Of a stretch of 64,000 nucleotides of DNA, positions 37,348 through 54,746 are shown in pieces (within the stretch, counting starts at the first letter, position 1; every line of letters begins with the position of its first letter). This DNA comes from Candidatus Uhrbacteria bacterium (GTDB lineage Bacteria > Patescibacteriota > Patescibacteriia > 2-12-FULL-60-25). The translations under genes were made by a program, and so were the position numbers. The stretch is from assembly GCA_003576745.1 (NCBI GenBank), contig QEVR01000003.1, forward strand, positions 1-64,000. Reading direction: 5' to 3'. A model generated the notes under the pieces. The model did no database searches. It was not told where the DNA came from and worked only from the letters and a program-made list of their open reading frames with translations.

Positions 37348-37435
37348 TTGACGAAACGGGAAATCCCGGTTATTCTCCAGCGTTCTTTTCTCGTATTTTT
37401 AGAAAACATTCGAGATTCGAATTCGTTTACAGAAG

Positions 37436-37634
37436 CATGTTACGTTTCCGCGAACTCGCTCCCTTGCCCTGTATGTCGCAAAGCCTCATACAGGGTCTGC
37501 GCTCGCTCGTTCATGAAAGCATGATACGCTTTCATGAACTCGCTCCCTTGCCCCTGTATGTCGCAAAGCCTCATACAGGGTCTGCGCTCGCTCGTTCATG
37601 AAAGCATGATACGCTTTCATGAACTCGCTCCCTT
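37436..37634. repeat. 85-bp tandem repeat, about 2.4 copies, abutting tRNA-Arg
   Basis: Two near-identical units with an 85-bp period (first from 37471, second from 37556) are preceded by a degenerate third. Each unit contains two hairpins, CCCTGTATG/CATACAGGG and TCATGAAAGC/GCTTTCATGA. Each ends in cgctcccttgcccctgta, whose last nine bases equal the first nine of the adjoining tRNA-Arg, so the repeat seems to have amplified from the tRNA 5' end. Confidence 0.85.
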
Positions 37635-37710
37635 GCCCCTGTAGCACAATGGATAGTGCGCCGGACTTCTAAGCCGTGCGATGTAGGTTCGACTCCTACC
37701 GGGGGCACCA
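37635..37710 (+). tRNA. tRNA-Arg (anticodon TCT)
   Basis: 76 nt with encoded CCA. Acceptor GCCCCTG/CGGGGGC; D-arm GCAC-AATGGAT-AGTGC; anticodon loop CTTCTAA; T-arm GTAGGTTCGACTCCTAC. The anticodon stem CCGGA/GCCGT has mismatches at its two ends, so it is weaker than normal. It reads AGA codons. Confidence 0.88.
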
Positions 37711-38732: not shown

Positions 38733-38807
38733 GGTGACCATGGTGTAGAGGCAACACAGCGGGTTGTGGTCCCGTTATCATGGGTTCGATTCCCATTGGT
38801 CACCCCA
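38733..38807 (+). tRNA. tRNA-His (anticodon GTG), integration target
   Basis: 75 nt including the encoded extra G-1 that pairs with C73, diagnostic for tRNA-His. Acceptor GTGACCA/TGGTCAC; anticodon loop TTGTGGT in GCGGG/CCCGT; T-arm ATGGGTTCGATTCCCAT; CCA encoded. The serine recombinase gene on the other strand ends inside it (38778), so this tRNA is the left attachment site of the island. Confidence 0.95.
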
Positions 38808-40394
38808 TCGAGAAATAACTTCGGCAAAAGCCGGAGTTTTCTCGTTTATAGAGCCATTTTCTGTCAGTTCCAACCGCTTGTAATCCGCTTCGATAGCGGA
38901 ATAGCTATTTTTGATTGGAACGAACCAGTCACAGCCCGAAATCGTGAGTTTTTTATCTTTTATCAGGAAGTTCCAACCAAGTGCGGAGAAAATCTCGCGC
39001 TTCTTTTCCAAAGTTCCTAGAGCAAACTCTTTGCGAGCGTGGGTAACAAAACAAAACGTGCGCTCGGTGAGCTCCAACCATTTCTCGGCACGACTTTCCG
39101 TTTCCCGCAGGTTATTTTTGAGTTTGGCAATTTTTTCCTGCAAAGCGTCCCGTTCCTTCACGAAAAAGGCGTCATCAATAAGCTGGCGGTAACGCATACG
39201 GGAAAGCTCGTCGAGCTCCCTTTGCGTTTCGGCCAGTGATTTGTGCTGATTCTCGTAGATTTTCGTGCGATCCTCGATTTCTTTGTCGTTATCCCTATTC
39301 AAGATTTCCAACGCCCAGTCTTTGAATTGGGGGAGAATGGTATGCTTTTCGAGCTCCGCCTCGATCTGATCCTCAAGCTCCTTTGCGGTCATTGGCTTTT
39401 GATCGCAGGCAATGCCCTTTTTCTTTTTCGTGCAGTAATAGTAGACGTAGGTTTTGAGCTTCCCTGTCTCTTTCACTATTTTTGTCTTCTCGACAGCCGT
39501 AATCATGGAACCACAAACGGCACAGCGTATGATGCCCGTGAATGGAAAGTCGTGACTTTTAGATCGTGGTTTGCCTTTTCTCCCCAAAATGACCTGCACG
39601 CGGTCGTATTCTTCCATCGTTATCATTGGTTTGTGATTGCCTTGATAGTTTCGCCCTGTCCATTCAAACATGCCTGTGTAGAAAATGTTGGTGAACATCT
39701 TGTAGGCGACGCTTTGTGCGAGCTCCCCACCGCCTCCACGCTTGCGGGTAGGCACGCGAAAACCCCACTCCTTGTTCGCAATCTCAAGGATCATCGGCAC
39801 GGTGTAATTGCCTGTGAGCAGCATGTCCCACATTTTACGGACGAGATCGAAACGCTCTGGGTCTGGGTAGATGGTGTGTTCCAGTTTGTCGTTCAAATAA
39901 CCGAGGGGAGCGCGTGACGGCAGCCAACCGCGATCCGCTTTGCCTTCCATGCCACGCTTGCTGTTTTTACGCAGATCAATGATGAACTGGTTAGCCATGC
40001 CGCTCTCCACATTGAACAGGAGCACGTTATCGTCGGGGAGATACTGACGATCAATCGTCTGGATGGATTGCAAGATGCCTTTTTGGAGCATCCAGCTCAA
40101 TTTGCCGCTATCAATCGGGTTGCGCGACAGGCGATTGATTTGCCAGCACAGGATACCGTTCGCGTCGCCTTTCTCGATCCGTTCCAACATGCTGGTGAAC
40201 TCGGGACGGCAGTCGGGCATTTTGGCGGACTTAGCTTCGGTGATGATTTCTTTGATTTCGATCTTCAAATCGGCCGCCAAGAGTTTGAGGCGGTTGGCCT
40301 GGTCTTCGATGGATTGAACCTGCCTGTCTTCGCTTTCGGACGACTTACGCGCATACAGGAAGTAGTGCAGGTTTGGTTGGTTTGGCTTCGTCAT
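38778..40394 (-). CDS. Large serine recombinase (integrase)
   Basis: 538 aa from the ATG at 40392-40394. Resolvase domain with the catalytic Ser at about 18 (YARKSSE) and the conserved Arg in INRLSRNP. Recombinase domain with GWLPSRAPLGY. Zinc ribbon (CAVCG at about 291, with distal YYYC and GIAC). Long coiled coil at about 370-470, as in large serine integrases. The final ten codons (WGDQWESNP and stop) are read antisense through the T-arm and acceptor of tRNA-His, so integration defines the protein's C-terminus. It catalyses integration and excision of the island. Confidence 0.95.
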   Translation of the reverse strand: MTKPNQPNLHYFLYARKSSESEDRQVQSIEDQANRLKLLAADLKIEIKEIITEAKSAKMPDCRPEFTSMLERIEKGDANGILCWQINRLSRNPIDSGKLSWMLQKGILQSIQTIDRQYLPDDNVLLFNVESGMANQFIIDLRKNSKRGMEGKADRGWLPSRAPLGYLNDKLEHTIYPDPERFDLVRKMWDMLLTGNYTVPMILEIANKEWGFRVPTRKRGGGGELAQSVAYKMFTNIFYTGMFEWTGRNYQGNHKPMITMEEYDRVQVILGRKGKPRSKSHDFPFTGIIRCAVCGSMITAVEKTKIVKETGKLKTYVYYYCTKKKKGIACDQKPMTAKELEDQIEAELEKHTILPQFKDWALEILNRDNDKEIEDRTKIYENQHKSLAETQRELDELSRMRYRQLIDDAFFVKERDALQEKIAKLKNNLRETESRAEKWLELTERTFCFVTHARKEFALGTLEKKREIFSALGWNFLIKDKKLTISGCDWFVPIKNSYSAIEADYKRLELTENGSINEKTPAFAEVISRWGDQWESNP

Positions 40395-40446
40395 AGGGTT
40401 TGCCGACCAAAAAGGACGGCTCTGGTTGATCCATCGCCACAACACA

Positions 40447-42464: not shown

Positions 42465-44669
42465 TTAGAAAGGCAGGGCTTCGTTTTTCTCCCCACCTTG
42501 CGTTGCACTATTTCCTACACTGTCGCTGTTCACTCCACTCTCGTTTCCACTATTGTTTGGAAGCTGGTAGAGCGAGGCAGGGAAAATCATCATCTTACGT
42601 TTGTCATCGGGGTCCTGTTCCTGAACGATCAGTCCAGCCGTTTCGAGCATGGGGAGGATTTGCTGGCGCAACTGGTTGCTGTCGAGCATTCGTCCATAGA
42701 CCGCAAAGTGTTTCTCCAAGACTTCTTGCCGCGAGACGCCAACTTTTGCCACGGGTTCGGCCAACATGCTATTCAAGACGTTTTTCGCTTGCCACGCGGG
42801 GAGAATGACCTCACGGAACAGGTTGTAGATGTACGGCGGCAGGTTTAGCTCTTGGCTCACAGCGATTTTCTCCCAGAGCTTGAACGCCGCATCAATGTCC
42901 TCATCGTTGGCAGTGATCGTGGTGCCGTTTCGTTCCCGCCACCAGACGTTCAGCAAGGCAAAGGATTTGACGAGAGCAAGCAGACGCTTGATGTCGCGTT
43001 GGTGACGAGGCTTGAGCGTCTTGTTATCGCTCAAAAACTGTTGCTCGATGCGTTCGTGATGCAGGATGTTGATTTCTTGGATGTTTTCTAGCTTGATCGC
43101 GCGGATGCGTTCCTTGAGCAATGCACGGTCTGGGTTCTCGTTCAGCCAACCGACAAACTCCTCGCTGTTCGCTTCCTTGCGGATCGTCGCGCTGATGCCT
43201 TGCTGGATTTTCTCTTGGCTTACCTCTGGGGAGAGAAGTAGAAAACGGGTGGCCTCCTGTTCGTCAATTTTCAAACCTGCCGTGCAAAAGATGACGGACG
43301 GATAGCCGCGCAAAAGTATGTTTTTGGTCTTCATGCCGAACTTTTGCGACTTGTCCGTGATTTTCAGCATGATCTCTTTTTTGTCGTGCGAGAGGAGCGG
43401 CCGCAGGCGTGCAAGGAGCTCGTTATGCGGCTGATCGAGGAAGATCAGAACCTTGTGGGACAAGTCCACCAGATAACAATTTTTGTCCTTGTTGTACTCC
43501 CCGACATCGTGAAAGAACGCGGTCGGTGAGCAGTAGGCGATCTCCATAACGTCGCCCTCGGGAAACAGGCGGGCGATCTCGGTTGGAATATAGCTTTTGC
43601 CCGTCGAGCTCGGCGCGTTGTAGCTGATGTTGAACTGGGAGCTTTCAGTGTAGGCGGATAACTCGCATAAAAAGGTCGAGAGCTTATTTTCTGCGTCGTA
43701 CTTGATCGTAAGCCCAAGCGTATCGAGGAGCTGGTCTGCGGTCATGGGAGAGAATTGTGTGACATCAATCCGTTCGGGGTATGGCTTGGCGTACTTGCCG
43801 AACAAGTCCTCAACCGTGCCGCCGAACTTCACGAAGTAATCCGTGATGTCACCGTGCTCCCCGAGCTCCGATGGAAGCGCGACCATGTACGTCTCACACG
43901 CTCCACCATTTTCAAACATTTTCGCGGCGCGATCCGAGCCCTTCCGTCCCGCATCATCGAGGTCGAAGCAAATATAAACCTTGCCGCATTTTTGGATGCG
44001 TTCAGCCCATTGCTCTTTGAACGTCATCGCACCATGCGTGCTCGTCACGGCTGCAACGCCTTTTGAGACAAGAGCCAAGCAATCCAGCTCGCCCTCGCAC
44101 ACCACAAGAGGTCCGTTCAGGTTTTCCAGTATCTCCCAGTCGTAGAGCTGGGCTTCCGCGCCGCTTTTTGGATAGGTGATCTTTTCGTCGCCATCAGCAG
44201 GGTCTTGGCGCAGTTTGAAATACGAATAGTTGCCGTACACATCCTTGATCGGGATCGTGATCCATTGCTTGCGATAAAACTGGCCGTAGCCGAGCTTATA
44301 TTTATCAATCACATCATCGGTCAACCCGCGCTTATGTAGGTACTCGCGGATTGGCTGCGGCAACGCTTCATGGCATTTTTCAACCAAGCTCGCATCAAAA
44401 CGTGTGACCTTTCTCGGCCGTGGCGCATCTTGAAACATGGGCTCGTCGCCAAAATGTTTCATCAGCGTTTTCAAATTGCCCTGCGCTCCGCATTTCTTGC
44501 AGTTATACTGCGAAGTCTCTGGATTGAAATAGAGATGCCCCTCGTTCGGGCGACTGTCGTGATCGCAATCCGCAAAAACGCATTTAGCGACCAGCTCCTC
44601 GCCGCTCTCGCGGAACTCGACGCCTTTGTCGCGCAGGTAGTCGCGGATGGAAATGTCTTGTAGGTTCAT
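42465..44669 (-). CDS. Primase-ATPase replication protein
   Basis: 734 aa. N-terminal zinc-binding primase domain with C30, C35 and the NCKKCG pair near 57-60. TOPRIM catalytic region with the Glu in LVVCEGELDCLAL and the acidic CFDLDDAGR. An AAA/RecA-like ATPase follows, with Walker A NAPSSTGKSY (about residue 350) and a Walker B-like VLIFLDQPHN. It makes primers and probably unwinds the element's DNA, giving replication independent of host primase. The tail is low-complexity Asn/Ser/Gly. Its first codons overlap the small gene at 44666. Confidence 0.85.
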   Translation of the reverse strand: MNLQDISIRDYLRDKGVEFRESGEELVAKCVFADCDHDSRPNEGHLYFNPETSQYNCKKCGAQGNLKTLMKHFGDEPMFQDAPRPRKVTRFDASLVEKCHEALPQPIREYLHKRGLTDDVIDKYKLGYGQFYRKQWITIPIKDVYGNYSYFKLRQDPADGDEKITYPKSGAEAQLYDWEILENLNGPLVVCEGELDCLALVSKGVAAVTSTHGAMTFKEQWAERIQKCGKVYICFDLDDAGRKGSDRAAKMFENGGACETYMVALPSELGEHGDITDYFVKFGGTVEDLFGKYAKPYPERIDVTQFSPMTADQLLDTLGLTIKYDAENKLSTFLCELSAYTESSQFNISYNAPSSTGKSYIPTEIARLFPEGDVMEIAYCSPTAFFHDVGEYNKDKNCYLVDLSHKVLIFLDQPHNELLARLRPLLSHDKKEIMLKITDKSQKFGMKTKNILLRGYPSVIFCTAGLKIDEQEATRFLLLSPEVSQEKIQQGISATIRKEANSEEFVGWLNENPDRALLKERIRAIKLENIQEINILHHERIEQQFLSDNKTLKPRHQRDIKRLLALVKSFALLNVWWRERNGTTITANDEDIDAAFKLWEKIAVSQELNLPPYIYNLFREVILPAWQAKNVLNSMLAEPVAKVGVSRQEVLEKHFAVYGRMLDSNQLRQQILPMLETAGLIVQEQDPDDKRKMMIFPASLYQLPNNSGNESGVNSDSVGNSATQGGEKNEALPF

Positions 44670-44878
44670 AGCTTTGTAATTTCGGGTAATGGGGGAGATA
44701 ATTTTCTCCGCTCCTGAATAAAATCGAACTCCTTTTGTGTCATCGGCTTGTAGACGACGGCGAGCAATCGCAAGAGTTTGATGCCCTGCTCGTAGGCATC
44801 CTGTTTGCTGATCTCTTTTCCGAACCGTTCCCGATAGATGTATTGGAACTTTCGGATGTCGTCGTCGCTCAAGACCAT
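44666..44878 (-). CDS. Small conserved-looking mobile-element protein
   Basis: 70 aa, mostly helical: DDDIRKFQYIYRERFGKEISKQDAYEQGIKLLRLLAVVY. I recall similar short proteins next to primases in Patescibacteria elements but cannot name a function. It overlaps the primase start by 4 nt (ATG inside the stop region), indicating coupled translation. Confidence 0.7.
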   Translation of the reverse strand: MVLSDDDIRKFQYIYRERFGKEISKQDAYEQGIKLLRLLAVVYKPMTQKEFDFIQERRKLSPPLPEITKL

Positions 44879-44885
44879 AACGACA

Positions 44886-45176
44886 TCACTCGCTGTACAA
44901 TTTATTTTTCAACGCCTTGATCGTGTCCGCGTAAGCCCTCGCCTTGATTTCCAAACGGTCGGACCAGTACAGGTCGCACAGCTCCTCGATGCCATCCTGT
45001 TTTCTGAAAATGAAAAGGCACTTGCGTGGGTTGTCTCTCCCCACCGACAAGAGCTCAAAGCCTGAACAGACGAGAGCTGCGGCGCAGTTCAAGTCATATA
45101 AAGTGAACACAAACGAAGGATCGTCGAGCGGGATGTATTGCGGCTCCCGCGATGGCCGCTGATCTTTTCGCGTCAT
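44886..45176 (-). CDS. DUF5659-like small protein
   Basis: 96 aa from the ATG at 45174-45176. FVFTLYDLNCAAALVCSGFELLSVGRDNPRKCLFIFRK resembles the short DUF5659 domain (YDL..A..L...G.E.......K..F.F) found in mobile elements. No catalytic motif. It sits 8 bp upstream of the 70-aa gene and is the first gene of the primase operon. A longer frame exists to 45224, but the extra residues look unrelated. Confidence 0.65.
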   Translation of the reverse strand: MTRKDQRPSREPQYIPLDDPSFVFTLYDLNCAAALVCSGFELLSVGRDNPRKCLFIFRKQDGIEELCDLYWSDRLEIKARAYADTIKALKNKLYSE

Positions 45177-45298
45177 AGAGTAATGATGGAAAAAGGTGAG
45201 TAATGACGTTTTGGTGAAAACCAAAAACGCATCTTGAGGATGCGTCTTGGGCTCTGTGCGGTCGGTCTACGATTTCACCTTTTTCTCCATCGTTTCTC
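45177..45298 (-). promoter_or_regulatory. Spacer with hairpin upstream of the primase operon
   Basis: It contains ACGCATC-ttga-GGATGCGT (45227-45246) and a GGTGAAAACC-type arm. It separates the unknown pair (45299-47400) from the primase operon and could terminate the former; on the minus strand the hairpin is followed by TTTTTGGTTTTC. Confidence 0.6.
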
Positions 45299-46228
45299 CT
45301 AAACTGGATCAGCCATCATGTAATGGCCGACTGTCGGAACAGAAATGACTTCATCAATTTTCTTGCATTTCTGCTTTATCTCACCCTTTATCTTCTGGCA
45401 GTCCTTTTGTGAATCATCAGCAACCTGTTTTCCCATCTTACCTCGAACAAAATAGTGAATGTCACCGTGGGGTACTTGCTTCATCCAGTTATCCCACAGG
45501 TAAAGTAGGAAATAGTATTGTGGGCTTTCAAGTGCGGCCGTGTAGATACGTTTGCCATCCAACGACAGGTGGCCGTTCTTTTTATCAAATTGGACTCGAC
45601 GCACGTCGTCGAAACACCTGACAATCCCCATCTTGTAGAAAATCTCCTTGTTGGCCGTAGGGACGAGCGCGTCGGCGAGTATGCAATAGCGCGTGCCTTC
45701 TTTGCCGTGAACAAGGTTGGGCTCTGCCGTGTTTGTGATGAGGACTTTCGGGGAGTTGCTGGCATTTTCAAAAAACGATGATGGCTCATGCAGATCGCCC
45801 GTTCGCAGGTAGTACACGGTCGCTTTCACTTTTTTGTCCTTATACGTTCCCAGACGATAGAAGGCATCCGTAGCATAGTCCGCTTCGTCTTTGATTGATC
45901 CGTCGTTCGTTTTCAATCCGAACTCGGTCGCAAGGAGATGCAGAAAAGCGGCATTGTCGTATTCAAAAATCGCCACGTCATCATCTGTGAGCTCTTGTCT
46001 GCCACATCCGTTCTCACATATAAAAAACAGAGCACCATCTTCCTCCCTAACTTGGCACTGATGATCTTCACCACAGAGCGTGCAGTCCACTGCATCGAGA
46101 TTTGCAGCACGCACGAGGATTTTCTTTCGTATTAGTTTTTCAAAATCGTCAAGATGCTCACGCCGCTCTCTGATGCCGAACTGGATCGGCAATGATCGTG
46201 CAGAGATACGTTCCAAAAACCACTGCAT
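45299..46228 (-). CDS. Unknown island protein with zinc-knuckle (second of a pair)
   Basis: 309 aa. The N-terminal third has a four-Cys pattern, CTLCGEDHQCQV then FFICENGCGRQEL, probably a zinc ribbon. The remainder includes KVLITNTAEPNLVHGKEG and a Lys-rich C-terminus. No enzyme motif recognised. It starts 2 bp after the stop of the 389-aa gene, so the two are made together and likely work together. Its place next to a restriction system suggests a defence or anti-defence role, which is inference only. Confidence 0.72.
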   Translation of the reverse strand: MQWFLERISARSLPIQFGIRERREHLDDFEKLIRKKILVRAANLDAVDCTLCGEDHQCQVREEDGALFFICENGCGRQELTDDDVAIFEYDNAAFLHLLATEFGLKTNDGSIKDEADYATDAFYRLGTYKDKKVKATVYYLRTGDLHEPSSFFENASNSPKVLITNTAEPNLVHGKEGTRYCILADALVPTANKEIFYKMGIVRCFDDVRRVQFDKKNGHLSLDGKRIYTAALESPQYYFLLYLWDNWMKQVPHGDIHYFVRGKMGKQVADDSQKDCQKIKGEIKQKCKKIDEVISVPTVGHYMMADPV

Positions 46229-46230
46229 AA

Positions 46231-47400
46231 TCAGGCAACATAGATACCCAAGTCTTTGAGGAACTTGCGGACCACATCATCTTGCGGACGATTTTTGAGC
46301 GCACAGGTGTTAGGTGGGGTAATAGTCACCGGCACCTGCTTACGCCTACCTTTGCCCGTCTGCTTGAATACGACCGTGATTTTGATGCTCTTTACCTCCC
46401 AGTCTTTGTTTAGATCGAGACCGAGGTCCTTGAGGATTTGCTGCGCTGCGCCTGTCCCAGCGTATTGAGCCCTACCCCCAACATCAACAAATAACGTGTG
46501 TGGTACGCCTTTATTCTTGAGACGGATGGATTTGAGATACGCCCGCTCGATGCCATAAGAGGCATTTGGAGCTTCCAGCTTGAGATTTGCCAGCCCGTTT
46601 GTCGTCGGGAGTTGGTAGCGGATTTCGTCGGTTTTGACGTTCTCTATTCCGAGGAAATGAGAGCAAAACAATTTCTGCATTTCTTTTATGATGGGATCGC
46701 CACCGAGTGCACGGACACCCAACATTTTGAGTTCTGGCTTGTAGACAAAAACAACATCAAAGACGGGTTTGCGGACGCGTTTCTCGTCGAGACGCTTTCC
46801 GTCGAAGCCGATGTCGCGCGTGGGGAGGTCTTCAAGATAAGCACGAAGGATGATTTTATCCTTGTCAGGCCATGATTTGATTTTACATTTTTCGCCTTTG
46901 TACGTTTTTTGATACACGGCTTGCACCATCGGCTCGAACTGTTGGATTCTTGCTTCCGTAATATCTGATAACGGAACGGTAGACGGAAGCGTGAGTTCTT
47001 TCACGACAAACTCCTCGATGTTGGCGTAGCTGTAGTAGTTATCAAACTCGGTCGGAAATTGTGTGAAAGCGGCGAGAGCTCGCTCGTCATTGTTCTGACA
47101 CTTCTTTTCGATGTGCTCGTCGCGATTTATGTTCGGGGCATAGGTGCAAAATGCCGCGATGTGGTTTTCTGACGAGAGTGAGTTGATGTACTCAAGCTCC
47201 ATGTACACCCTGTCGCGCAATGCGTCGTCATTTTGCGCTTTGATGTATTCAATAAAACGATCCGCGCGTTGTTCGCTCGTCTCCTCCTTGTTGCCGATGG
47301 GAAAATTGTTTTTGCCGTGCCGCTCTTTGAGGTACTCGGCAAGGAGCTCCCCACGGATGTGCAGAACAAAATCCCTCGGATCGGTGTAATGCGAAGCCAT
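46231..47400 (-). CDS. Unknown island protein (first of a pair)
   Basis: 389 aa, no membrane helix or signal. The N-terminus is highly charged (MASHYTDPRDFVLHIRGELLAEYLKERHG). The C-terminal half is beta-rich with basic patches (KSIKITVVFKQTGKGRRKQVPVTI). I do not recognise a family. It is divergent from the HTH-mod-res operon, with the start codons 75 bp apart, so that short spacer must hold both promoters and the HTH protein may control both directions. Confidence 0.72.
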   Translation of the reverse strand: MASHYTDPRDFVLHIRGELLAEYLKERHGKNNFPIGNKEETSEQRADRFIEYIKAQNDDALRDRVYMELEYINSLSSENHIAAFCTYAPNINRDEHIEKKCQNNDERALAAFTQFPTEFDNYYSYANIEEFVVKELTLPSTVPLSDITEARIQQFEPMVQAVYQKTYKGEKCKIKSWPDKDKIILRAYLEDLPTRDIGFDGKRLDEKRVRKPVFDVVFVYKPELKMLGVRALGGDPIIKEMQKLFCSHFLGIENVKTDEIRYQLPTTNGLANLKLEAPNASYGIERAYLKSIRLKNKGVPHTLFVDVGGRAQYAGTGAAQQILKDLGLDLNKDWEVKSIKITVVFKQTGKGRRKQVPVTITPPNTCALKNRPQDDVVRKFLKDLGIYVA

Positions 47401-47475: not shown

Positions 47476-47691
47476 ATGTTACACCGAACGTCAATCGAGG
47501 ACGGTGCAAAAAATCAGCACGAGCTCCCCGAACTGCTCACGCTGAAAGAGGCGAGCGAAATCCTAAAGTGTCATCCAAACACCCTTCGTCAGTGGGACAA
47601 GAAGGGTATTTTGCCTGCGATCCGCATCGGGGAGAAACGGACGCGGCGATACAGAAAAGAAGACATCCTCAAGTTCCTGCAAGGAAAGTGA
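47476..47691 (+). CDS. MerR/excisionase-type helix-turn-helix protein
   Basis: 71 aa from the ATG at 47476; another in-frame ATG is at 47458. The winged-helix core LLTLKEASEILKCHPNTLRQWDKKGILPAIRIGEKRTRRYRKEDILKFL matches the excisionase/MerR DNA-binding fold. It is probably a regulator of the divergent promoters or a directionality factor for the serine recombinase. It is the first gene of the operon, 33 bp before mod. Confidence 0.88.
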   Translation: MLHRTSIEDGAKNQHELPELLTLKEASEILKCHPNTLRQWDKKGILPAIRIGEKRTRRYRKEDILKFLQGK

Positions 47692-47724
47692 CGGCTCACA
47701 TCACAACCAACAATTACTATTACT

Positions 47725-49530
47725 ATGGCAAACGAGTTCCAAAAAGTTGAACAAGCGAAGGGTCGCCCGCTCTTGCAATGGGTCGGCAAAAAGCCGCTTG
47801 AGAGCATCGAGTATTACCCCGCGCAGGAAAAAGAAATCTACGGCGATAAAAGTGCAAAGGATTTCAACAAGTTGTTCTGGGGAGACAACCTGCAAGTGCT
47901 CGCGCATCTCCTCAAGGAGCATCGCGGCGCGATTGATTTGATCTACATTGATCCGCCGTTCGACAGCAAGGCGGACTATGTGAAAAAAGTGGAGGTCAGA
48001 GGAGAAAAAATCGAAGGACAACAGCAGAGCCTGTTGGAGGAGAAACAGTACACAGACATCTGGGATAAAGATGAGTGGTTGCAATTCATGTATGAGCGTT
48101 TGATTTTGATGAAAGAGCTCATGTCTGAAAAAGCCAGTATTTTTGTACACATTGATTACCACCGATCATCGTATCTCCGATTGGTCATGGATGAAGTCTT
48201 TGGGGAGGATAATTTTCGCAACGAAGTTATTTGGTATTATCCGAATAAAATACAGGGCAATATCAATCGGCTTGCGGCAAACCACGACAACATTTACTGG
48301 TACTCCAAAACCCCAGATTTCAAGTTCCATCGCATCGAAGAAGAACGAGCAAAATCAATCAAAGTCAACGCACGTTATTGGGACGCGGAGAAGCAGTTGT
48401 TTGCCACAAAGCGAGATGGCAAAGGAAACGTCATCTATGTCGAGCGAGGCGCAAAGATTATTGATGACGTTTGGATCATCCCTGCCATTTCTTCGGGCGG
48501 CAAGGATCAAACTGACTATCCGACACAGAAACCCGAAGAAATCCTCGAGAGAATTATCGTGTCCATGAGTGATGCGGGTGATAGTGTTTTGGATTGTTTC
48601 GCTGGCTCTGGTACTACCTGTGCCGTAGCTCAAAAGCTCGGCCGACGATGGATCGGTTGCGACATCAACTTGGGAGCCATTCAGACAACGACGAAACGCC
48701 TCAATCAGATCATCGCCGAACAGATCAAGGAAAAGAAAGGCAAGCTCTTGAGCGATTTCAAAGGATCGCTCGGATTCAAGGTGTTCAACGTGAACGACTA
48801 TGACCTGTTCAACAACGAGGTTCAGGCGAAGGAGATCGTGATGCAGCAGTACGGCGTTGAGCCGATCAAGCGAAGCTACTTTGACGGCGTGCTGGATAAC
48901 AATTTCGTGAAGGTGATGCCGCTCAACCGCGTGCTCAACAAGATGGACATTCGCACACTCCTCAAGAACATAGGCGATAAGCTGGACGGATTCACCGTGA
49001 AGGCCAAATCAAAATCTGGGGAGCCGATCTACGAGGAGGGCGTGCTGGTGATCTGTTCAGGCATGGAACTCGACGTGGCGGATTTCCTGAAAAAAGAGAA
49101 TAAGACGGGCGTAAAGATCGAGGCGCGTGACATCATCACGGACAAGAAAAATCTGATCTTCCGCAAGAGAGCCGAGGCCAAAATTGAGGTAAGGACCAAA
49201 GACAAAAAGTTGACCGTCGAGCTCAAAGACTTTTTCTCCCCGAGGCTCATGCAAAAGCTCGAACTGGAAAACGAGAAGGTCTTGAAAAAGGAAGATCGCG
49301 CGAAGGTCACGGATTTCCGACAGATCGTTGATAGCGTCACGATTGACGTGGACTACGATGGCAAGCTATTCAACGCCGAGGAAAAGCTGATGGACCTCCC
49401 CGACAAGAAGGAGGTCATCAAAGGCAAATACGAATGGGAGTATCCGAAAAAGGGCAAGTACACCGTGGCCGTAAAAATCGTGGACGTGCTCGGGGAGGAG
49501 GACTTTCAGACGTTCGACGTAACCGCATAA
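47725..49530 (+). CDS. mod: Type III restriction-modification methyltransferase (Mod)
   Basis: 601 aa, beta-class N6-adenine or N4-cytosine methyltransferase. Motif IV YIDPPFDSKADY (residues 76-79 DPPF) precedes motif I DCFAGSGTT (292-298), with TQKP in between and GDNL at about 53, in the order expected for the beta class. The C-terminal third is charged and unlike other Mod proteins I can recall; it would hold part of the target recognition. It forms the Mod2-Res complex with the next gene, 4 bp downstream. All catalytic residues are present. Confidence 0.95.
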   Translation: MANEFQKVEQAKGRPLLQWVGKKPLESIEYYPAQEKEIYGDKSAKDFNKLFWGDNLQVLAHLLKEHRGAIDLIYIDPPFDSKADYVKKVEVRGEKIEGQQQSLLEEKQYTDIWDKDEWLQFMYERLILMKELMSEKASIFVHIDYHRSSYLRLVMDEVFGEDNFRNEVIWYYPNKIQGNINRLAANHDNIYWYSKTPDFKFHRIEEERAKSIKVNARYWDAEKQLFATKRDGKGNVIYVERGAKIIDDVWIIPAISSGGKDQTDYPTQKPEEILERIIVSMSDAGDSVLDCFAGSGTTCAVAQKLGRRWIGCDINLGAIQTTTKRLNQIIAEQIKEKKGKLLSDFKGSLGFKVFNVNDYDLFNNEVQAKEIVMQQYGVEPIKRSYFDGVLDNNFVKVMPLNRVLNKMDIRTLLKNIGDKLDGFTVKAKSKSGEPIYEEGVLVICSGMELDVADFLKKENKTGVKIEARDIITDKKNLIFRKRAEAKIEVRTKDKKLTVELKDFFSPRLMQKLELENEKVLKKEDRAKVTDFRQIVDSVTIDVDYDGKLFNAEEKLMDLPDKKEVIKGKYEWEYPKKGKYTVAVKIVDVLGEEDFQTFDVTA

Positions 49531-49534
49531 GAAC

Positions 49535-52075
49535 ATGGACAGCTTATTTCTCCAAAACATCCGCGCACGGGTGTCTGACTGGCGAACAGGCGGATATCAA
49601 GGCGTCCTACGCGAGACGCAGAACATCCTCGCGCACGCCAAGCGCGTCGGTTTTTTGCACCCGCCGCAATTCGAGGCGTTTGAGACGTATATCTATCTCA
49701 AGGAGATCGTTGGCAACAAGCTGTCGCTTGAGGTCTTTCGTTCGTCGTTCGCAAACGAGCTGGAGTTTTTGCGTGCACTCGGCATCACTGACAAAGAGGC
49801 TCTCGAACTCGCCTACGATCCGAAGAAGAACGAAAAGATACAGGCGATTTTGGAGGAAAAGTTCGGCACCGCCGACTACGCAAATCAGGTCTACGCGCTC
49901 ACAATGGGATCGGGGAAAACGATCCTCATGGCTGTGATGATGATCTACGATTTCGTCCTCTCGTACTACCACAAAGACGACAAGCGGTTTGCGAAAAATG
50001 CCCTTGTCTTTGCGCCCGACACGACGATCATCGAAAGCCTGAAAGAGATCAAGACGTTCGACTACGCAAAGGTTTTGCCGAAGGAATACCAAAACATCCT
50101 GCTCAACATCAAATACCATTATCTCGAAAGTACAGACACGCCACTCTCCCCGAATGGCAACTACAACGTCATCGTTTCCAACTCCCAGAAGATCATCCTG
50201 AAAACGCGATCCGAAAATGGAAATGGCACAATGCGGCTGTTCGGCGACAAGGGCGATCTGGAAAAGCGGGAAGTGGAAAACAAGCGTCTCTATGCCATCC
50301 GCACGCTCTCGGAGCTGATGATCTTCGTTGACGAAGCACATCACTCCTACGGCAAAACGCTCGAAGGCACGCTCAAAAAGACGCGCCAGACGATTGAGTA
50401 TCTGCACAAGAGCACGCCGCTCATCGCGGTCGTGAACTTGACGGGTACGCCGTATGTGAACAACAAGATGATCGCGGATGTCGTCTATCATTTCGGACTG
50501 AAGCAAGGTATCGAAAAAGGCATCCTGAAACAGGTCCGCATTTTGGATTATGGCAATGTGAAATCCGAGCAATTTCTTGAGGAGGTCATTGATACGTTCA
50601 AGAGCGAGTACGGAGCGAAACGGCTGGAAGGCAGGCTCCCGAAGATCGCGTTTTACGCGGCCAGCATTTCCGATCTGCAACAGGAGCTCAAGCCAAAGCT
50701 CGAACGGATACTCGCCGCGCGGAAAATCAATCTCGACACGATTCTCGAATACCACACCGAAGCGGAAGACAACCGCGACGAGTTCTTCAAGCTCGATACA
50801 GCCGAAAGCAAAAAGCAGTTCGTTCTGCTTGTCGGCAAAGGTACGGAGGGCTGGAACTGCCGCTCGCTGGTCGCGGTTGCGCTCTACAAGAAGCCGACGA
50901 GCACGATCCTCGTCCTCCAGTCCACAACGCGCTGCTTGCGTGCCATTGGCGACAATTCAACGCGAGCGCATATCTTCCTGTCGAAAGAGAACTACAAAAT
51001 CCTCGACCACGAACTCAAAAACAACTTTTCATCCAGCATCAGCGAGCTAAACGCGCAGGATCAGAAAATGATTGATTTTGAATTGAAAGTCGAAAAACGA
51101 AGAACCGTGAAGGTGAAAAAGATATTGAAAGAAATCATCGCCGTCCAAGACAGCAAAGCTGAAGACATCAAGATAGATTTCAAGAAGTTCAAAGCCGATG
51201 ATTACATGTCGTATGTGAGCGAAGGCTCGATCTTTTTGGGCGAGGGCGGCAAAGCGGGCTTTCAGGAAGCGAAAGCGATCCGCAGGCTCAAAGAGGAAGG
51301 CGACAGGACGTTTTACGAGATCGTCGAGATCATCAATCGTTATACGCATTTGTCATGTCTCGTCATCGAGAGCATCATGGAGGTAAGCGGCAAAAAACGG
51401 GCTGATTTGGTGAAGGAAGCCAACGAAAACGTCGCCTTGCTCCCGTTCATCATCCAAGAAATCCTCAAGAGCGCATACAAGTACGAAGAAAAATCCGAGA
51501 CGGTCGAGGAAGAACTTGAACTCACAAAGCTCTACCCATTCAAAATCAGCGTTCAGCAAGGCAGAAACGCACTCGTTGTCTACCGTGAGGACGAAGAACG
51601 CGACGGACGAAAAGGACGCATCGGTTTTCACATCAATCCATACAACTTCGATAGCGGTGACGAAAAGGACCTATTCAGATACTTGCGCGACGTTTTGGAA
51701 AAGAGAGAAGCGGTCAAAGATGTGTATTTCACGGGTGGCGTCACCGACACTTCCCACAACGATTTTTATTTTGAGTATTGGAGCCCAGAAAAACGGCGCA
51801 TTGCACGTTATTTCCCCGATTTCCTTGTGGAGACGACAAGGGGGAGATTTTTGGTGATCGAGGTCAAGCACGGCGGGGAGAAGGCGGATTACGAAGCCAA
51901 CAAACGATCCTATAAAGGCACGCTGGAAAGCGTGACGAACGAAGTCTTTGCCAAAGAGCTCGGCTTTGAGGAGTTCCGCGCGGCAAACAAAAACTTTGAG
52001 TATGTCATCAAGTTCAACGCTTCGCTTCAGCAGGAGCAGGTGAAGCTACTTGAGGAAATCCAAAACCTCGCATGA
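49535..52075 (+). CDS. res: Type III restriction enzyme Res subunit (helicase-nuclease)
   Basis: 846 aa. SF2 helicase with Walker A TMGSGKTIL (about 125-129), Walker B/DEAH in IFVDEAHHSYG, motif III NLTGTPY, and motif VI within STTRCLRAIG. C-terminal PD-(D/E)xK nuclease: ARYFPDFLVETTRGRFLVIEVKHGG (about 760-790), with the Asp, Glu and Lys present. It translocates or slides and cuts unmethylated sites. It overlaps the next gene by 4 nt (ATGA), so the downstream nuclease is coupled to it, which is not usual for type III systems. Confidence 0.95.
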   Translation: MDSLFLQNIRARVSDWRTGGYQGVLRETQNILAHAKRVGFLHPPQFEAFETYIYLKEIVGNKLSLEVFRSSFANELEFLRALGITDKEALELAYDPKKNEKIQAILEEKFGTADYANQVYALTMGSGKTILMAVMMIYDFVLSYYHKDDKRFAKNALVFAPDTTIIESLKEIKTFDYAKVLPKEYQNILLNIKYHYLESTDTPLSPNGNYNVIVSNSQKIILKTRSENGNGTMRLFGDKGDLEKREVENKRLYAIRTLSELMIFVDEAHHSYGKTLEGTLKKTRQTIEYLHKSTPLIAVVNLTGTPYVNNKMIADVVYHFGLKQGIEKGILKQVRILDYGNVKSEQFLEEVIDTFKSEYGAKRLEGRLPKIAFYAASISDLQQELKPKLERILAARKINLDTILEYHTEAEDNRDEFFKLDTAESKKQFVLLVGKGTEGWNCRSLVAVALYKKPTSTILVLQSTTRCLRAIGDNSTRAHIFLSKENYKILDHELKNNFSSSISELNAQDQKMIDFELKVEKRRTVKVKKILKEIIAVQDSKAEDIKIDFKKFKADDYMSYVSEGSIFLGEGGKAGFQEAKAIRRLKEEGDRTFYEIVEIINRYTHLSCLVIESIMEVSGKKRADLVKEANENVALLPFIIQEILKSAYKYEEKSETVEEELELTKLYPFKISVQQGRNALVVYREDEERDGRKGRIGFHINPYNFDSGDEKDLFRYLRDVLEKREAVKDVYFTGGVTDTSHNDFYFEYWSPEKRRIARYFPDFLVETTRGRFLVIEVKHGGEKADYEANKRSYKGTLESVTNEVFAKELGFEEFRAANKNFEYVIKFNASLQQEQVKLLEEIQNLA

Positions 52076-52845
52076 AAAAAGAGTTCAAAGTAAAATCGCG
52101 CGGCCTGTATAAAGAAGGCAAAGGCCCGTTCAAGATCAGTCGTTCTGGGATTGAACTGTTTGTAGAGTGTCCGTGTTGTTTTTACCTGAACAATCGTCTC
52201 GGCATCCGCAGGCCATCCGGTCCGCCATTCAACATCAATAAGGCCGTGGATGCACTGCTCAAAAAAGAGTTTGACGTTCACCGTGCAGGTAAAACACAAC
52301 ATCCGTTGATGAAGAAATACAAGATCAATGCCGTACCGTTCCAGCATGAGATGATGGACGAATGGCGCGAGAACTTCAAGGGCGTGCAACACCTCCACGA
52401 GCCGACCAACCTATTGATTACTGGCGCAGTGGATGACATCTGGGTGAACAAAAAAAGGGAATTGATCGTCGTTGATTACAAAGCCACTTCAAAGGCAACC
52501 GAGGTGGATTTGAGCGCAGACTGGCAGATGGGTTACAAACGGCAAATGGAGGTGTATCAATGGCTTCTGCGACGCCTCGGGTTCAAGGTGTCCAACACGG
52601 GCTATTTCGTCTATTGCAACGGACGGGCAGACAAAGAGGCTTTCGATGGCAGGGTAGAGTTTGATGTTTCCGTACTTCCGTACACAGGAGATGACAACTG
52701 GGTGGAAGGCACGCTCTATAAAATAAAGGCATGTCTGACTGGCGAAAATACGCCTGGAATGAGCGTAGATTGCGAGTTCTGCGGGTACGCAAAAGCTCGG
52801 CAGGCATTGACTATTTCGCCAAAATCAGTTATCTTGAGTGTGTAA
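52072..52845 (+). CDS. Cas4-like Fe-S PD-(D/E)xK nuclease, coupled to res
   Basis: 257 aa. The nuclease core is GAVDDIWVNKKRELIVVDYKA (Asp and the D-x-K pair), followed by QMEVYQWLLRRLG, the QxxxY of the Cas4/RecB family. Cys residues flank the core: VECPCCFYLN near 33-36 and CEFCGYAKA near 230, the arrangement that holds a 4Fe-4S cluster in Cas4. It probably trims or resects DNA ends. It is not next to CRISPR genes, but is translationally coupled to Res. Why a second nuclease is needed is an open question. Confidence 0.85.
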   Translation: MKKEFKVKSRGLYKEGKGPFKISRSGIELFVECPCCFYLNNRLGIRRPSGPPFNINKAVDALLKKEFDVHRAGKTQHPLMKKYKINAVPFQHEMMDEWRENFKGVQHLHEPTNLLITGAVDDIWVNKKRELIVVDYKATSKATEVDLSADWQMGYKRQMEVYQWLLRRLGFKVSNTGYFVYCNGRADKEAFDGRVEFDVSVLPYTGDDNWVEGTLYKIKACLTGENTPGMSVDCEFCGYAKARQALTISPKSVILSV

Positions 52846-53096
52846 GGTCATTACAACTTCCACTGTCGCTCGCAGTTCAATGAGCCGTCGTCTTCTCCTC
52901 GCAATACTGCGAGGTAGGCAAACAGGGAAATCTGCTGTGAGCCAGATGAAGAATGGCGACTAACCGCACGCGGTTGGGAGATTTCATTCAGCTTTTGCTG
53001 GATCAAATCTTTCAGCCGCGTTTTGTTTTTCAAAGGTCGTTCCCGAGGTGATCGGGAGGAGAACAAATCGGCATCTCACTCCTAACGATTACCATT
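52846..53096. other. Structured spacer, possible leader or small RNA
   Basis: No gene. It has CCTCGCA-atac-TGCGAGG (near 52895-52915), CCGCACGCGG, TTCAGCTTTTGCTGGA and TTCCCGAGGTGATCGGGAGG. The final part (ggtgatcgggaggagaacaaa) resembles tttatcggggaggcgaacaaa at 54670. It could be an untranslated RNA leader of the HD gene; the bases do not match a known riboswitch that I can recall. Confidence 0.4.
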
Positions 53097-54482
53097 ATGA
53101 AAAACAATCAAAACGATTCAAAAAACGTCTCCCCGTGGCAGGAATACTGGGATACATGCGACAAACTCACAAAGAAAGCCGAGGACTTGGTGCGTGAATG
53201 TATCAAAGGAACTCGCAAAGGTCTCCCCGATGAGCCGAACTATCTTCATTCGTTCCGCGTGCGTGACATGGTGAGTTCATGTCATCACTGGGATGATCCC
53301 GATTACGATTTATTCATCGCCGCACTCTTACACGACATCGTTGAGGACGGCGGTGTCTCGTTCGAGGAACTAGAAAAAATGGGCTTCACGAAACGCACGG
53401 TAGAGCTGGTGCGCCTCTGCTCACATGACATGAACATCAAAGACAAAACCGAACGATGGATACGGATGATCGTGCATCTTGTCGAAGCAAAAGACGAGGA
53501 CGCTTGGCGGATCAAGCTAGCTGACCTGACGGACAACCTTGCTCAATCCAAGGGCTTATCGCCGGAAAATCGTCAGTTCATGGTCGAAGTAAAAGCACCC
53601 ATGCTCTTGCGGCTGGGTCATGTTGGTTATTCCGCGTATGGAAAGCTCCAAGATGAAATGGAAAGGCAGAAAAAGGAGCTTGCAAAGCAATGGCGGTATG
53701 TCGTCACGCAATGGACGGAGGAGTTCGATATTGATGGGTTGTATGACCATTTCGCGGTGCTGGGAGATTTTGAGGATCGGTGTACTGCCTTTGTCCATGC
53801 GGTGACTGAAATGGAAGCCCGCGTCAGAGAGCGGCTGGAACCGAAGGTGGACTGGAACCCGCTCGAACGAGACGATCGGGTACGACCGCCATTCGGGAGG
53901 CCAAACAAGTTCAACAAAATCGTATTTTCAAAGGCGGCATCGCGCCGTGACAAAACTGGATACGATTCGATCTACGTCTACATTGAGGTGATCGAGGTGC
54001 CTTATGATGCCGTTGTCGGGGAGCGCATGTTCAACCGAGAGTGCGGATGGGACGTGCACTACTTCTACGAAAAGCTGACTGGTTCAAAAAAAGACAAACA
54101 GAAATCTGATGCTCTTTTTAGCCTGAAACGAGATCGCAAGAAACCCACGCAATGTCATCTCTGGAAAAAAGAGGAATTGACCGATGGTGACCTCGATAAT
54201 GCGTTCGACGTACTGCATACGTTTTCCGAGGATTCACATTTCAGCCGCAGGCTCATCAAGTGCAAAGACTGTGGCCAGCTCTATCTCAAAGAGTTCTATG
54301 AGGAGATAGATTGGATTGATGGCGAAGACCCGCAATATGTGACCTACATTCCCGTTGAAAGCCAGAAGGAAGCCGAGACGATCAATCAAGTCGGTTTATG
54401 GGAGTTCCAAGCCTTTTCTCCGAGGATCAATAGGGATTGGCCAAAGGACGAGCCGAAGAAAATCTACTGGATCGGCAGATAA
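53097..54482 (+). CDS. RelA/SpoT-like HD hydrolase with novel C-terminal half
   Basis: 461 aa. The N-terminal HD domain (residues 45-160) has H51 (LHSFRVRDMV), the HD pair in AALLHDIVEDGG (about 79-80), FEELEKMGF and IKLADLTDNLAQSKG, the metal-binding pattern of SpoT/MESH1 ppGpp hydrolases. The second half (about 230-461) has no recognised fold, but contains CKDCGQLYLKEFYEE, a zinc-like pair. A nucleotide-signal hydrolase is likely; the substrate could be (p)ppGpp or a defence nucleotide. It is last in the island cargo operon. Confidence 0.8.
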   Translation: MKNNQNDSKNVSPWQEYWDTCDKLTKKAEDLVRECIKGTRKGLPDEPNYLHSFRVRDMVSSCHHWDDPDYDLFIAALLHDIVEDGGVSFEELEKMGFTKRTVELVRLCSHDMNIKDKTERWIRMIVHLVEAKDEDAWRIKLADLTDNLAQSKGLSPENRQFMVEVKAPMLLRLGHVGYSAYGKLQDEMERQKKELAKQWRYVVTQWTEEFDIDGLYDHFAVLGDFEDRCTAFVHAVTEMEARVRERLEPKVDWNPLERDDRVRPPFGRPNKFNKIVFSKAASRRDKTGYDSIYVYIEVIEVPYDAVVGERMFNRECGWDVHYFYEKLTGSKKDKQKSDALFSLKRDRKKPTQCHLWKKEELTDGDLDNAFDVLHTFSEDSHFSRRLIKCKDCGQLYLKEFYEEIDWIDGEDPQYVTYIPVESQKEAETINQVGLWEFQAFSPRINRDWPKDEPKKIYWIGR

Positions 54483-54746
54483 AGACTTGGGTGAGGAAAA
54501 TCTGCTATCATTTTGTTGGGATAGCGAGATTTGGCATTTTTCGGCCGAGAGGTCGGAAACAGTGCCGTGCAATAAGTCCGCCATCCGCCTTTGTGCGGTG
54601 GATTCGCCTCACGGCGAAAGGTGCGGTGAAAAGCGGCGGTGACTTACGGGTATACCAAGAGCCCTGATTTATCGGGGAGGCGAACAAAGGCACGAAACAT
54701 TCAAGAGCACGGTGATGACCTTCAAGTAACTGGCTATCCAACAAAG
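54483..54746. other. Structured spacer after the HD gene
   Basis: No gene. Hairpins CCGCC-tttgt-GCGG and TTCGCC-tcac-GGCGAA lie near 54585-54620. It also holds a second copy of the atcgggg-agg-gaacaaa motif seen at 53046. Confidence 0.4.

What the first reader, a model, noticed from the sequence alone, without database searches (positions are those of the whole stretch)
47476..54482. Composite defence operon: type III R-M + Cas4-like nuclease + HD hydrolase
HTH, mod, res, a Fe-S PD-(D/E)xK nuclease overlapping res by 4 nt and an HD protein follow in one direction to a single terminator. Type III systems normally need only mod and res. The coupled Cas4-like nuclease and nucleotide-type HD enzyme suggest an extended system, for example end-resection plus a signal-nucleotide response.
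Basis: partly seen in the sequence, partly recalled or inferred. Interest (0 to 1): 0.72.

Follow-up and report, generated by a model that had tools for sequence, protein, structure and literature searches.

The report
Restriction operon with plug-in nuclease
A mobile DNA element in a tiny bacterium carries a restriction system whose last gene is a Cas4-like DNA-degrading enzyme that, across this bacterial phylum, keeps turning up as the last gene of unrelated anti-virus operons, while the neighbouring 'HD' gene is a separate unit that only happens to follow it.

Summary
The five genes exist where stated, but they are two units, not one operon. Unit 1 (47476-52845) is HTH-mod-res-nuclease: an apparently intact type III-like R-M system, with the nuclease start overlapping the res stop by 4 nt. 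It lies on an integrative element beside tRNA-His with a large serine recombinase. Unit 2 is the HD gene. It has its own promoter (52807-52835), which overlaps the last nuclease codons, then a conserved structured leader with a strong terminator-like hairpin (52968-53021). The same promoter-leader-HD block sits near tRNA-His in two other genera without mod-res, so the junction is at about 52806/52807. No HD homologue of this subfamily is beside mod-res elsewhere. The nuclease is a solo Cas4-like protein, widespread in this phylum and mostly away from R-M. Yet it recurs downstream of unrelated defence operons: in 85 genes, 11 methyltransferases upstream on the same strand (0.55 expected), 1 downstream; in fresh genomes, 6 of 25 against 0; on seven viral contigs, at types I, II and III R-M, CBASS and Gabija genes. 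The tree needs at least 10 changes of this association. Best reading: a plug-in DNA-end nuclease for defence operons; function untested. Solo-Cas4 in CPR and Cas4 beside R-M were known.

The parts
47476..47691 (+). small HTH (MerR/excisionase-like) protein, likely regulator; alternative GTG start 47458
   Evidence: Pfam HTH_17 1.9e-13, MerR; NCBIfam excisionase domain 8e-8; a similar HTH ORF precedes mod in L116
47725..49530 (+). Mod: type III-like DNA methyltransferase, beta order of motifs (DPPF at 76, FAGSG at 292)
   Evidence: PF01555 1.2e-50; PADLOC MTase_III 6.6e-72; motifs
49535..52075 (+). Res: SF2 helicase-nuclease (GSGKT 125, DEAH 266, TGT 303, PD-(D/E)xK 761-779)
   Evidence: PF04851 4.8e-10; motifs; 80 relatives, most with mod nearby
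52072..52845 (+). solo Cas4-like PD-(D/E)xK nuclease, D121/D122, D135-Y-K137, Q158-x3-Y162, four Cys; start overlaps res stop by 4 nt
   Evidence: PF12705 1.2e-12; conservation in 86 sequences; AF2 model, Cas4 Z 12.9; R-M association
52807..52835 (+). promoter of the HD unit (TTGACT-17-TATCTT), inside the last 13 codons of the nuclease gene; marks the right junction of the R-M insert at about 52806/52807
   Evidence: homology to the tRNA-His-to-HD region of G291 and G321 begins at 52807; hexamers kept in G291, G321, G297 but not found in G298 by the same pattern
52846..53096 (+). conserved structured leader of the HD unit, with hairpin 52968-53021 and U-run; terminator or attenuator. Not part of the R-M unit
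   Evidence: 75-89% nt identity in family genomes; hairpin z -7.6; covariation, 7 pairs changed on both sides
53097..54482 (+). HD protein with SpoT/MESH1-type HD site and an unknown C-terminal domain; separate unit, not part of the R-M operon
   Evidence: SpoT_RelA 1.2e-10 over residues 46-174; PDB 3nqw 1.6e-6; homologues without mod-res
38778..40445 (-). large serine recombinase at the left end of the element; its 3' end overlaps tRNA-His (38734-38807)
   Evidence: XisF/CcrA-type, phrog_95 integrase 3e-67, tRNA
42465..47400 (-). element backbone genes: TOPRIM primase (42465-44669), 70-aa, DUF5659 (44886-45224), 309-aa and 389-aa proteins; in varying subsets upstream of mod-res in most of the 21 closest Res loci

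Best explanation
The unit is HTH-mod-res-nuclease on a serine-recombinase element integrated next to tRNA-His. Mod methylates host sites. Mod-Res translocates on and cuts unmethylated invading DNA (inferred from type III biochemistry). The 4-nt-coupled Cas4-like nuclease then resects or degrades the DNA ends, so that the cut cannot be repaired (inferred, untested). The nuclease is a lineage-wide solo-Cas4-like protein that has been attached many times downstream of different defence operons, because it acts on a product that many of them share, broken DNA. The HD gene is a separate, independently promoted unit that was already downstream of tRNA-His. Shown here: gene content, intact motifs, predicted fold, overlap, separate HD unit, repeated R-M association. 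Inferred: co-transcription, end degradation, defence function.
For: Motifs of Mod, Res and nuclease are intact. The AF2 model (pLDDT 84.6) matches Cas4, AdnA, RecE, MGME1 and EXO5 exonucleases. In 85 nuclease genes of 80 genomes, 13 have a methyltransferase within 8 kb against 2.2 expected, and 11 of these are same-strand upstream against 0.55 expected. Other PDDEXK_1 genes of the same genomes: 3 of 84 (Fisher p 0.016; 0.027 without the window). In 24 fresh genomes, 6 of 25 scored genes have a methyltransferase upstream on the same strand and 0 downstream. Res-nuclease with a 4-nt overlap recurs in G146 (L282), and mod-res-nuclease with a 0-nt gap in viral contig L300, where PADLOC calls MTase_III and REase_III. 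The R-M label needs 11 changes on the tree, at least 10 forced by supported branches. HD separation.
Against: 72 of 85 nuclease genes have no methyltransferase of the two families searched within 8 kb; many sit beside genes that read as housekeeping, truB and serS by eye. 0 of 80 Res relatives have this nuclease on the DNA held, so mod-res plainly works without it. The nearest tree relatives of the window copy are chromosomal copies without R-M. L242 and L244 keep similar DNA downstream of the nuclease with different defence operons upstream, which also fits a hot-spot boundary. The up-versus-down count is 10 to 1 without the window (p 0.012), and operon genes are not independent. No transcript, activity or phage data exist.
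Confidence: 0.6

Rival explanations
1. Boundary or passenger model: the nuclease is a chromosomal or element repair gene that marks the edge of a defence hot spot. Defence operons swap in upstream of it and overlaps arise by chance or for expression only; it has no role in restriction.
For: Most copies are away from methyltransferases (72 of 85). L242 and L244 share similar downstream genes but have different upstream operons, mod-res-SIR2-HerA against mod-res-mod-HerA-unknown. The window copy groups with chromosomal copies.
Against: 34 of 41 genomes of the window's family lack the nuclease, so here it most likely came with the element rather than being a resident edge. Tight or overlapping junctions recur with unrelated partners (L282 -4, L300 0, L301 -4, L299 +4 nt). 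The direction bias was seen again in fresh genomes.
Confidence: 0.25
2. One reading: one five-gene composite system in which the HD enzyme answers a signal nucleotide and the nuclease resects ends.
For: All five genes are co-directional; the HD site is complete and of the SpoT/MESH1 type.
Against: HD has its own conserved promoter, leader and terminator-like hairpin; its homologues are not beside mod-res; the 80 Res loci lack its subfamily, with one weak generic HD hit in L159; no nucleotide synthase among the proteins scanned.
Confidence: 0.04
3. MGE-Cas4 model: the nuclease serves the element itself (recombination, replication or counter-defence), not restriction.
For: It is on a recombinase-bearing element; in L282 it overlaps a serine recombinase by 4 nt; MGE-encoded Cas4 of unknown role is known (PMC5704561 abstract).
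Against: The related elements L126-L146 share the backbone and mod-res but lack this nuclease; on viral contigs the partners upstream are defence or HerA genes rather than replication genes in 7 of 7 close relatives.
Confidence: 0.1

Closest known systems
Type III restriction-modification (Mod-Res; EcoP15I and EcoP1I recalled)
   Same: Beta-order methyltransferase plus SF2 helicase with C-terminal PD-(D/E)xK, adjacent and co-directional
   Different: Extra HTH and overlapping Cas4-like nuclease; Res is outside PADLOC's REase_III models (no hit) and below NCBIfam's cut-off for BPTD_3080
Solo-Cas4 and Cas4-like pfam12705 proteins (Hudaiberdiev et al. 2017, PMC5704561; abstract, passages and section 8 read)
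   Same: They report solo-Cas4 in many CPR genomes, solo-Cas4 beside R-M genes in several DPANN archaea ('uncharacterized defense pathways'), and a UvrD-Cas4-like fusion beside type III Mod-Res or Dcm
   Different: Here it is a stand-alone short nuclease with no helicase fused, in Patescibacteria, repeatedly the downstream gene of types I, II and III R-M, CBASS and Gabija operons; the passages and section that I read do not describe that pattern
Argonaute-associated Cas4 family protein ACE1 (PDB 9iac, 9iab; entry titles only)
   Same: Cas4-family nuclease tied to a non-CRISPR defence protein; fold match Z 9.0
   Different: Partner is Argonaute; Z to Cas4 proper is higher (12.9)
MESH1 / SpoT HD hydrolases
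   Same: The HD protein has H51, HD79-80, ED83-84 and KLADLTDN; PDB 3nqw E 1.6e-6
   Different: No synthetase; extra unknown C-terminal domain; not part of the R-M unit

Membership tests
Type III R-M | Mod of the beta class N6/N4 methyltransferase type | tested here: met
   PF01555, PADLOC MTase_III, DPPF before FxGxG
Type III R-M | Res with SF2 helicase motifs and C-terminal PD-(D/E)xK, adjacent to mod | tested here: met
   Motifs; mod stop 49530, res start 49535
Type III R-M | ATP-dependent cleavage between inverted unmethylated sites; one-strand m6A | not testable with these tools
   Needs biochemistry
Cas4 (CRISPR adaptation) sensu stricto | Reaches curated Cas4 model cut-offs | tested here: not met
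   NCBIfam cas4 30.5 bits, cut-off 65; Pfam Cas_Cas4 19.0, cut-off 22.7
Cas4 (CRISPR adaptation) sensu stricto | Next to cas1/cas2 or a CRISPR array | tested here: not met
   No cas1, cas2 or effector family among the ten proteins scanned around it; arrays were not searched for beyond repeat scans
Cas4-like PD-(D/E)xK (pfam12705) | Model above cut-off, PD-(D/E)xK plus Q-x3-Y, four Cys, Cas4/RecB fold | tested here: met
   48.8 bits, cut-off 22; conserved residues; fold
UvrD-Cas4 fusion of type III loci (PMC5704561) | Nuclease fused to a UvrD-type helicase | tested here: not met
   257-aa protein with no helicase domain
RelA/SpoT-type HD hydrolase (HD gene) | HD catalytic signature | tested here: met
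   SpoT_RelA domain match, below full-length cut-off
CBASS / signal-nucleotide system | Nucleotide cyclase or synthase in the operon | tested here: not met
   No cyclase family among the proteins scanned in 42.4-54.5 kb

The most novel reading that the evidence does not exclude
Patescibacteria use one interchangeable solo-Cas4-like nuclease as a common downstream executioner for many unrelated immune operons (types I, II and III R-M, GmrSD, Schlafen, Gabija, CBASS loci). It acts as a portable stand-in for RecBCD-type degradation of broken invader DNA, and mobile elements bolt it onto the end of whatever defence they carry.
Probability: 0.33. Interest if true: 0.75.

Novelty: new variant of a known kind. 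Interest (0 to 1): 0.55.

Why it matters
Solo-Cas4 in ultra-small bacteria has had no assigned function; the 2017 survey calls for experiments on it. A specific, repeated position behind many defence operons gives a testable role (end resection after restriction) and a marker: in these genomes the nuclease can point to uncharacterised defence operons. It also corrects the composite reading, since the HD gene should not be built into a model of this system.

Tried and rejected
HD as an operon member: rejected. Nuclease as a fixed part of this Mod-Res clade: rejected, 0 of 80 Res loci carry it on the DNA held. Nuclease as pure housekeeping with random neighbours: rejected as the whole story by the strand and side bias. 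HD structure: single-sequence model useless (pLDDT 38), not used. Scans of viral contigs with single proteins P0002, P0001 and P0004 found no relatives; only the nuclease alignment did. Phage records: no match; plasmids: one gammaproteobacterial plasmid, 45.6% identity, no R-M gene named in the annotation nearby. PDB by sequence gave no useful nuclease match, only chance hits. Att repeat at the window's own junction: none of 16 nt or more in 36-60 kb and only chance 9-10-mers between the tRNA-His end and 52-55.4 kb; G291 shows an 18-bp duplicate of its tRNA-His 3' end. Rfam: nothing for leader or trailer above gathering score.

Of the 90 nuclease genomes first listed, G155, G107, G069, G111, G025, G159, G166, G218, G234 and G027 were left out, as were the genomes with only weak or fragmentary nuclease hits and, G302 and G313. 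The context scan had 87 loci, 2 without a called nuclease ORF (L081, L245), so 85 scored. The fresh set had 26 genes, 1 not scored (L321). In the fresh set some congeners of first-set genomes occur, and the marker queries for HsdM, Eco57I and Dcm came from the first set, viral contigs included.
Full report
What is there. The window is a 64-kb piece of contig C1 of a 1.06-Mb, four-contig genome. Close Res relatives are mostly named as Patescibacteria/CPR genomes, so the host is taken to be one too (inference). On the + strand lie HTH 47476-47691, mod 47725-49530, res 49535-52075, nuclease 52072-52845 and HD 53097-54482. Domain searches support each name. Mod has DPPF before FAGSG (beta order). 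Res has GSGKT, DEAH, TGT and a C-terminal PD...EVK. HD has H51, HD79-80, ED83-84 and KLADLTDN.

The element. On the - strand to the left are a large serine recombinase (38778-40445), whose 3' end overlaps tRNA-His (38734-38807), and replication-type and unknown genes, among them a TOPRIM primase. A scan of 84,980 species genomes with a five-sequence Res alignment kept 80 of 95 loci. Of the 21 closest (L126-L146), all show mod before res, and most share one or more of these left-hand genes. So mod-res is stable cargo of a family of elements. 0 of the 80 loci encode a relative of the nuclease on the DNA held (up to 8 kb a side; several contigs are shorter). One, L159, has a weak, opposite-strand HD-type match far away. 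In the similar arrangement of genome G256 (res 76% identical; the same locus as L126), nothing like the nuclease or HD follows res; that genome keeps its nuclease on another contig.

What follows res elsewhere. Of the 21 closest Res loci, all but L140 and L145 hold at least 300 nt after res. In four of those 19, the gene starting within 10 nt of, or overlapping, the res stop has an endonuclease-like match: DUF2726 in L129 and L130 (E 1e-25 and 4e-28, with weak REase_MTES_1575 matches; that DUF2726 is PD-(D/E)xK-like is recalled), Cas_Cas4 plus RNase_H_2 in L139 (2e-5 and 4e-25), and HARE-HTH in L144 (1e-19, with weak PD-(D/E)xK matches). A fifth, in L127, overlaps by 4 nt and has no Pfam match. 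So the place after res may be a slot for swapped-in nucleases. This was not tested against chance.

The HD gene is another unit. (1) A 251-nt gap holds a 54-nt hairpin (52968-53021; -39.4 kcal/mol for 86 nt, shuffles -18.5 +/- 2.8) followed by a U-run. (2) The leader 52846-53096 is 75-89% identical in other genomes of the family, above the HD reading frame itself (about 74-83% in the main matches); 9 of 41 family genomes match it, own genome and one 23-nt hit included. It stands before HD genes (G291, G321, G297, G298) and before stand-alone copies of the HD protein's C-terminal domain (G307, G303). (3) Homology to the G291 and G321 leaders starts at window 52807, inside the last 13 nuclease codons, with a promoter TTGACT-17-TATCTT whose hexamers are kept in G291, G321 and G297; the pattern was not found in G298. 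(4) In G291 and G321 this block lies downstream of tRNA-His with no mod-res between; G291 shows a duplicated 18-bp tRNA-His 3' end. The plain reading is an insert, from the tRNA-His end to about 52806, between tRNA-His and a resident HD unit. No direct repeat marks the window's own junction, so the exact mechanism is open.

The nuclease family. It has matches in 106 of 286 phylum genomes but only 7 of 41 of the window's own family. In an alignment of 86, S23, R24, C33, D121, D122, D135, Y136, K137, Q158, Y162, C234 and C237 are invariant and C36 is 85/86. An AF2 model from 11 sequences (pLDDT 84.6) matches Cas4 of the Cas4/Cas1/Cas2 complex (7mi5, Z 12.9, rmsd 4.2, 183 residues), AdnA, RecE, MGME1, EXO5, lambda exonuclease and, lower, the Argonaute-associated Cas4 ACE1 (Z 9.0, rmsd 4.6, 191). 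It passes PF12705 but not the curated Cas4 cut-offs, so it is Cas4-like, not Cas4.

Association with defence. With PF01555 and PF02384 in 80 nuclease-bearing genomes, 13 of 85 nuclease genes have a methyltransferase within 8 kb, 2.2 expected from genome size and gene number. 11 are upstream on the same strand (0.55 expected), 1 downstream, 1 on the opposite strand. Genome sizes in that expectation are the rounded values of the tool. 84 other PDDEXK_1 genes of the same genomes, from the listed part of a truncated output, gave 3 (Fisher p 0.016, 0.027 without the window). In 24 fresh genomes, 6 of 25 scored genes had a methyltransferase upstream on the same strand (L317, L320, L322, L325, L331, L338; two are weak Dcm-type matches, 7e-11 and 1e-9), one more had only an HsdR-like gene (L330), one a Dcm-type gene on the other strand (L327), and none a methyltransferase downstream on the same strand.

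Partners. Next to or a few genes before the nuclease are, by Pfam, GmrSD (L058), Schlafen helicase (L062), EcoEI-type HsdR (L074), DUF4011/MTES helicase-nuclease (L082), SIR2 plus HerA behind mod-res (L242), HerA behind mod-res (L244), type III res (L282, 4-nt overlap, then a serine recombinase again with 4-nt overlap), reverse transcriptase (L268), Mrr-like (L280) and DUF4268 behind an Eco57I-type enzyme (L067). On viral contigs the nuclease alignment found 13 loci. The seven with at least 55% identity all have a same-strand gene ending from 14 nt before to 41 nt past the called nuclease start. By PADLOC and Pfam these operons are: type I R-M plus CBASS cyclase (2e-104) and 2TM effector (6e-60) in L299; MTase_III plus REase_III in L300, with a 0-nt gap and a recombinase-like ORF on the other strand (read by eye); C5 methyltransferase plus SNF2 in L301; HerA alone in L302; an Eco57I-type methyltransferase in L303; GajA and GajB (8e-63, 3e-50) in L304, behind an ORF that reads as HsdR (by eye); and an N6_N4 methyltransferase in L305. 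The six more distant loci were not scanned against libraries; they showed no such operon to the Mod/Res profiles. Whether these contigs are true viruses was not tested.

Counter-results. Most nuclease genes are not near methyltransferases (72 of 85). Several sit next to genes that read as truB or serS (by eye), and the window copy groups with six chromosomal copies without R-M (support 99/95). The R-M label is scattered: 11 changes, at least 10 forced, hardly less than shuffled labels (12.3; 73 of 500 shuffles as low). So association is gained and lost often rather than inherited. That fits a plug-in, but also a hot-spot edge.

Prior knowledge. Hudaiberdiev et al. 2017 (PMC5704561; abstract, passages and section 8 read) already report solo-Cas4 in many CPR genomes, solo-Cas4 next to R-M genes in several DPANN archaea, and UvrD-Cas4 fusions beside type III Mod-Res and Dcm. 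An aquifer survey reports high defence density in CPR (PMC12259885, passages), and a patescibacterial island with a full type I R-M is described in PMC12455944 (passages). I found no paper describing the repeated downstream position of a stand-alone Cas4-like nuclease across types of R-M, CBASS and Gabija in Patescibacteria; searches, open-licence full texts only.

Verdict. The R-M-nuclease unit is real and of moderate interest as one case of a wider pattern. The five-gene composite is not supported. Function of the nuclease is inferred from fold and place, not shown.

Noticed in passing
window 52846-53096: Conserved structured non-coding leader before the HD gene, more conserved than the gene, with covarying stems (7 of 40 pairs changed on both sides in 7 sequences, 0 of 500 shuffles) and a terminator-like hairpin; no Rfam family. 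Candidate attenuator or riboswitch-like element.
   Followed up: partly
L129:11944-12016: A 73-nt piece of the same leader (81%) lies about 100 nt upstream of an 87-aa, zinc-ribbon-like ORF on another mod-res element, so the leader is not tied to HD genes.
   Followed up: no
window 54516-54660: Stretch downstream of the HD gene, about 75-87% identical in G321, L079 and, in part, L133 (downstream of res there); unexplained conserved non-coding DNA.
   Followed up: no
window 54136-54482 (HD protein residues about 347-461): The C-terminal domain of the HD protein, with a CxxC motif, exists as a stand-alone gene in three family genomes (G298, G303, G307); function unknown.
   Followed up: no
L299:6101-8720: CBASS cyclase and 2TM effector sit between a type I R-M operon and the nuclease on one viral contig.
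   Followed up: partly
L067:8307-8630 and L268:9346-9654: Similar-looking 102-107-aa proteins directly follow the nuclease in two R-M loci; possible partner (by eye).
   Followed up: no
genome G000 contig C3:67669-70796: A second N6_N4 methyltransferase with a type III res-like gene just downstream in the same genome, without the nuclease family.
   Followed up: no
window 37423-37638: Tandem direct repeat, two identical 85-nt copies with a related 47-nt piece, just before tRNA-Arg.
   Followed up: no
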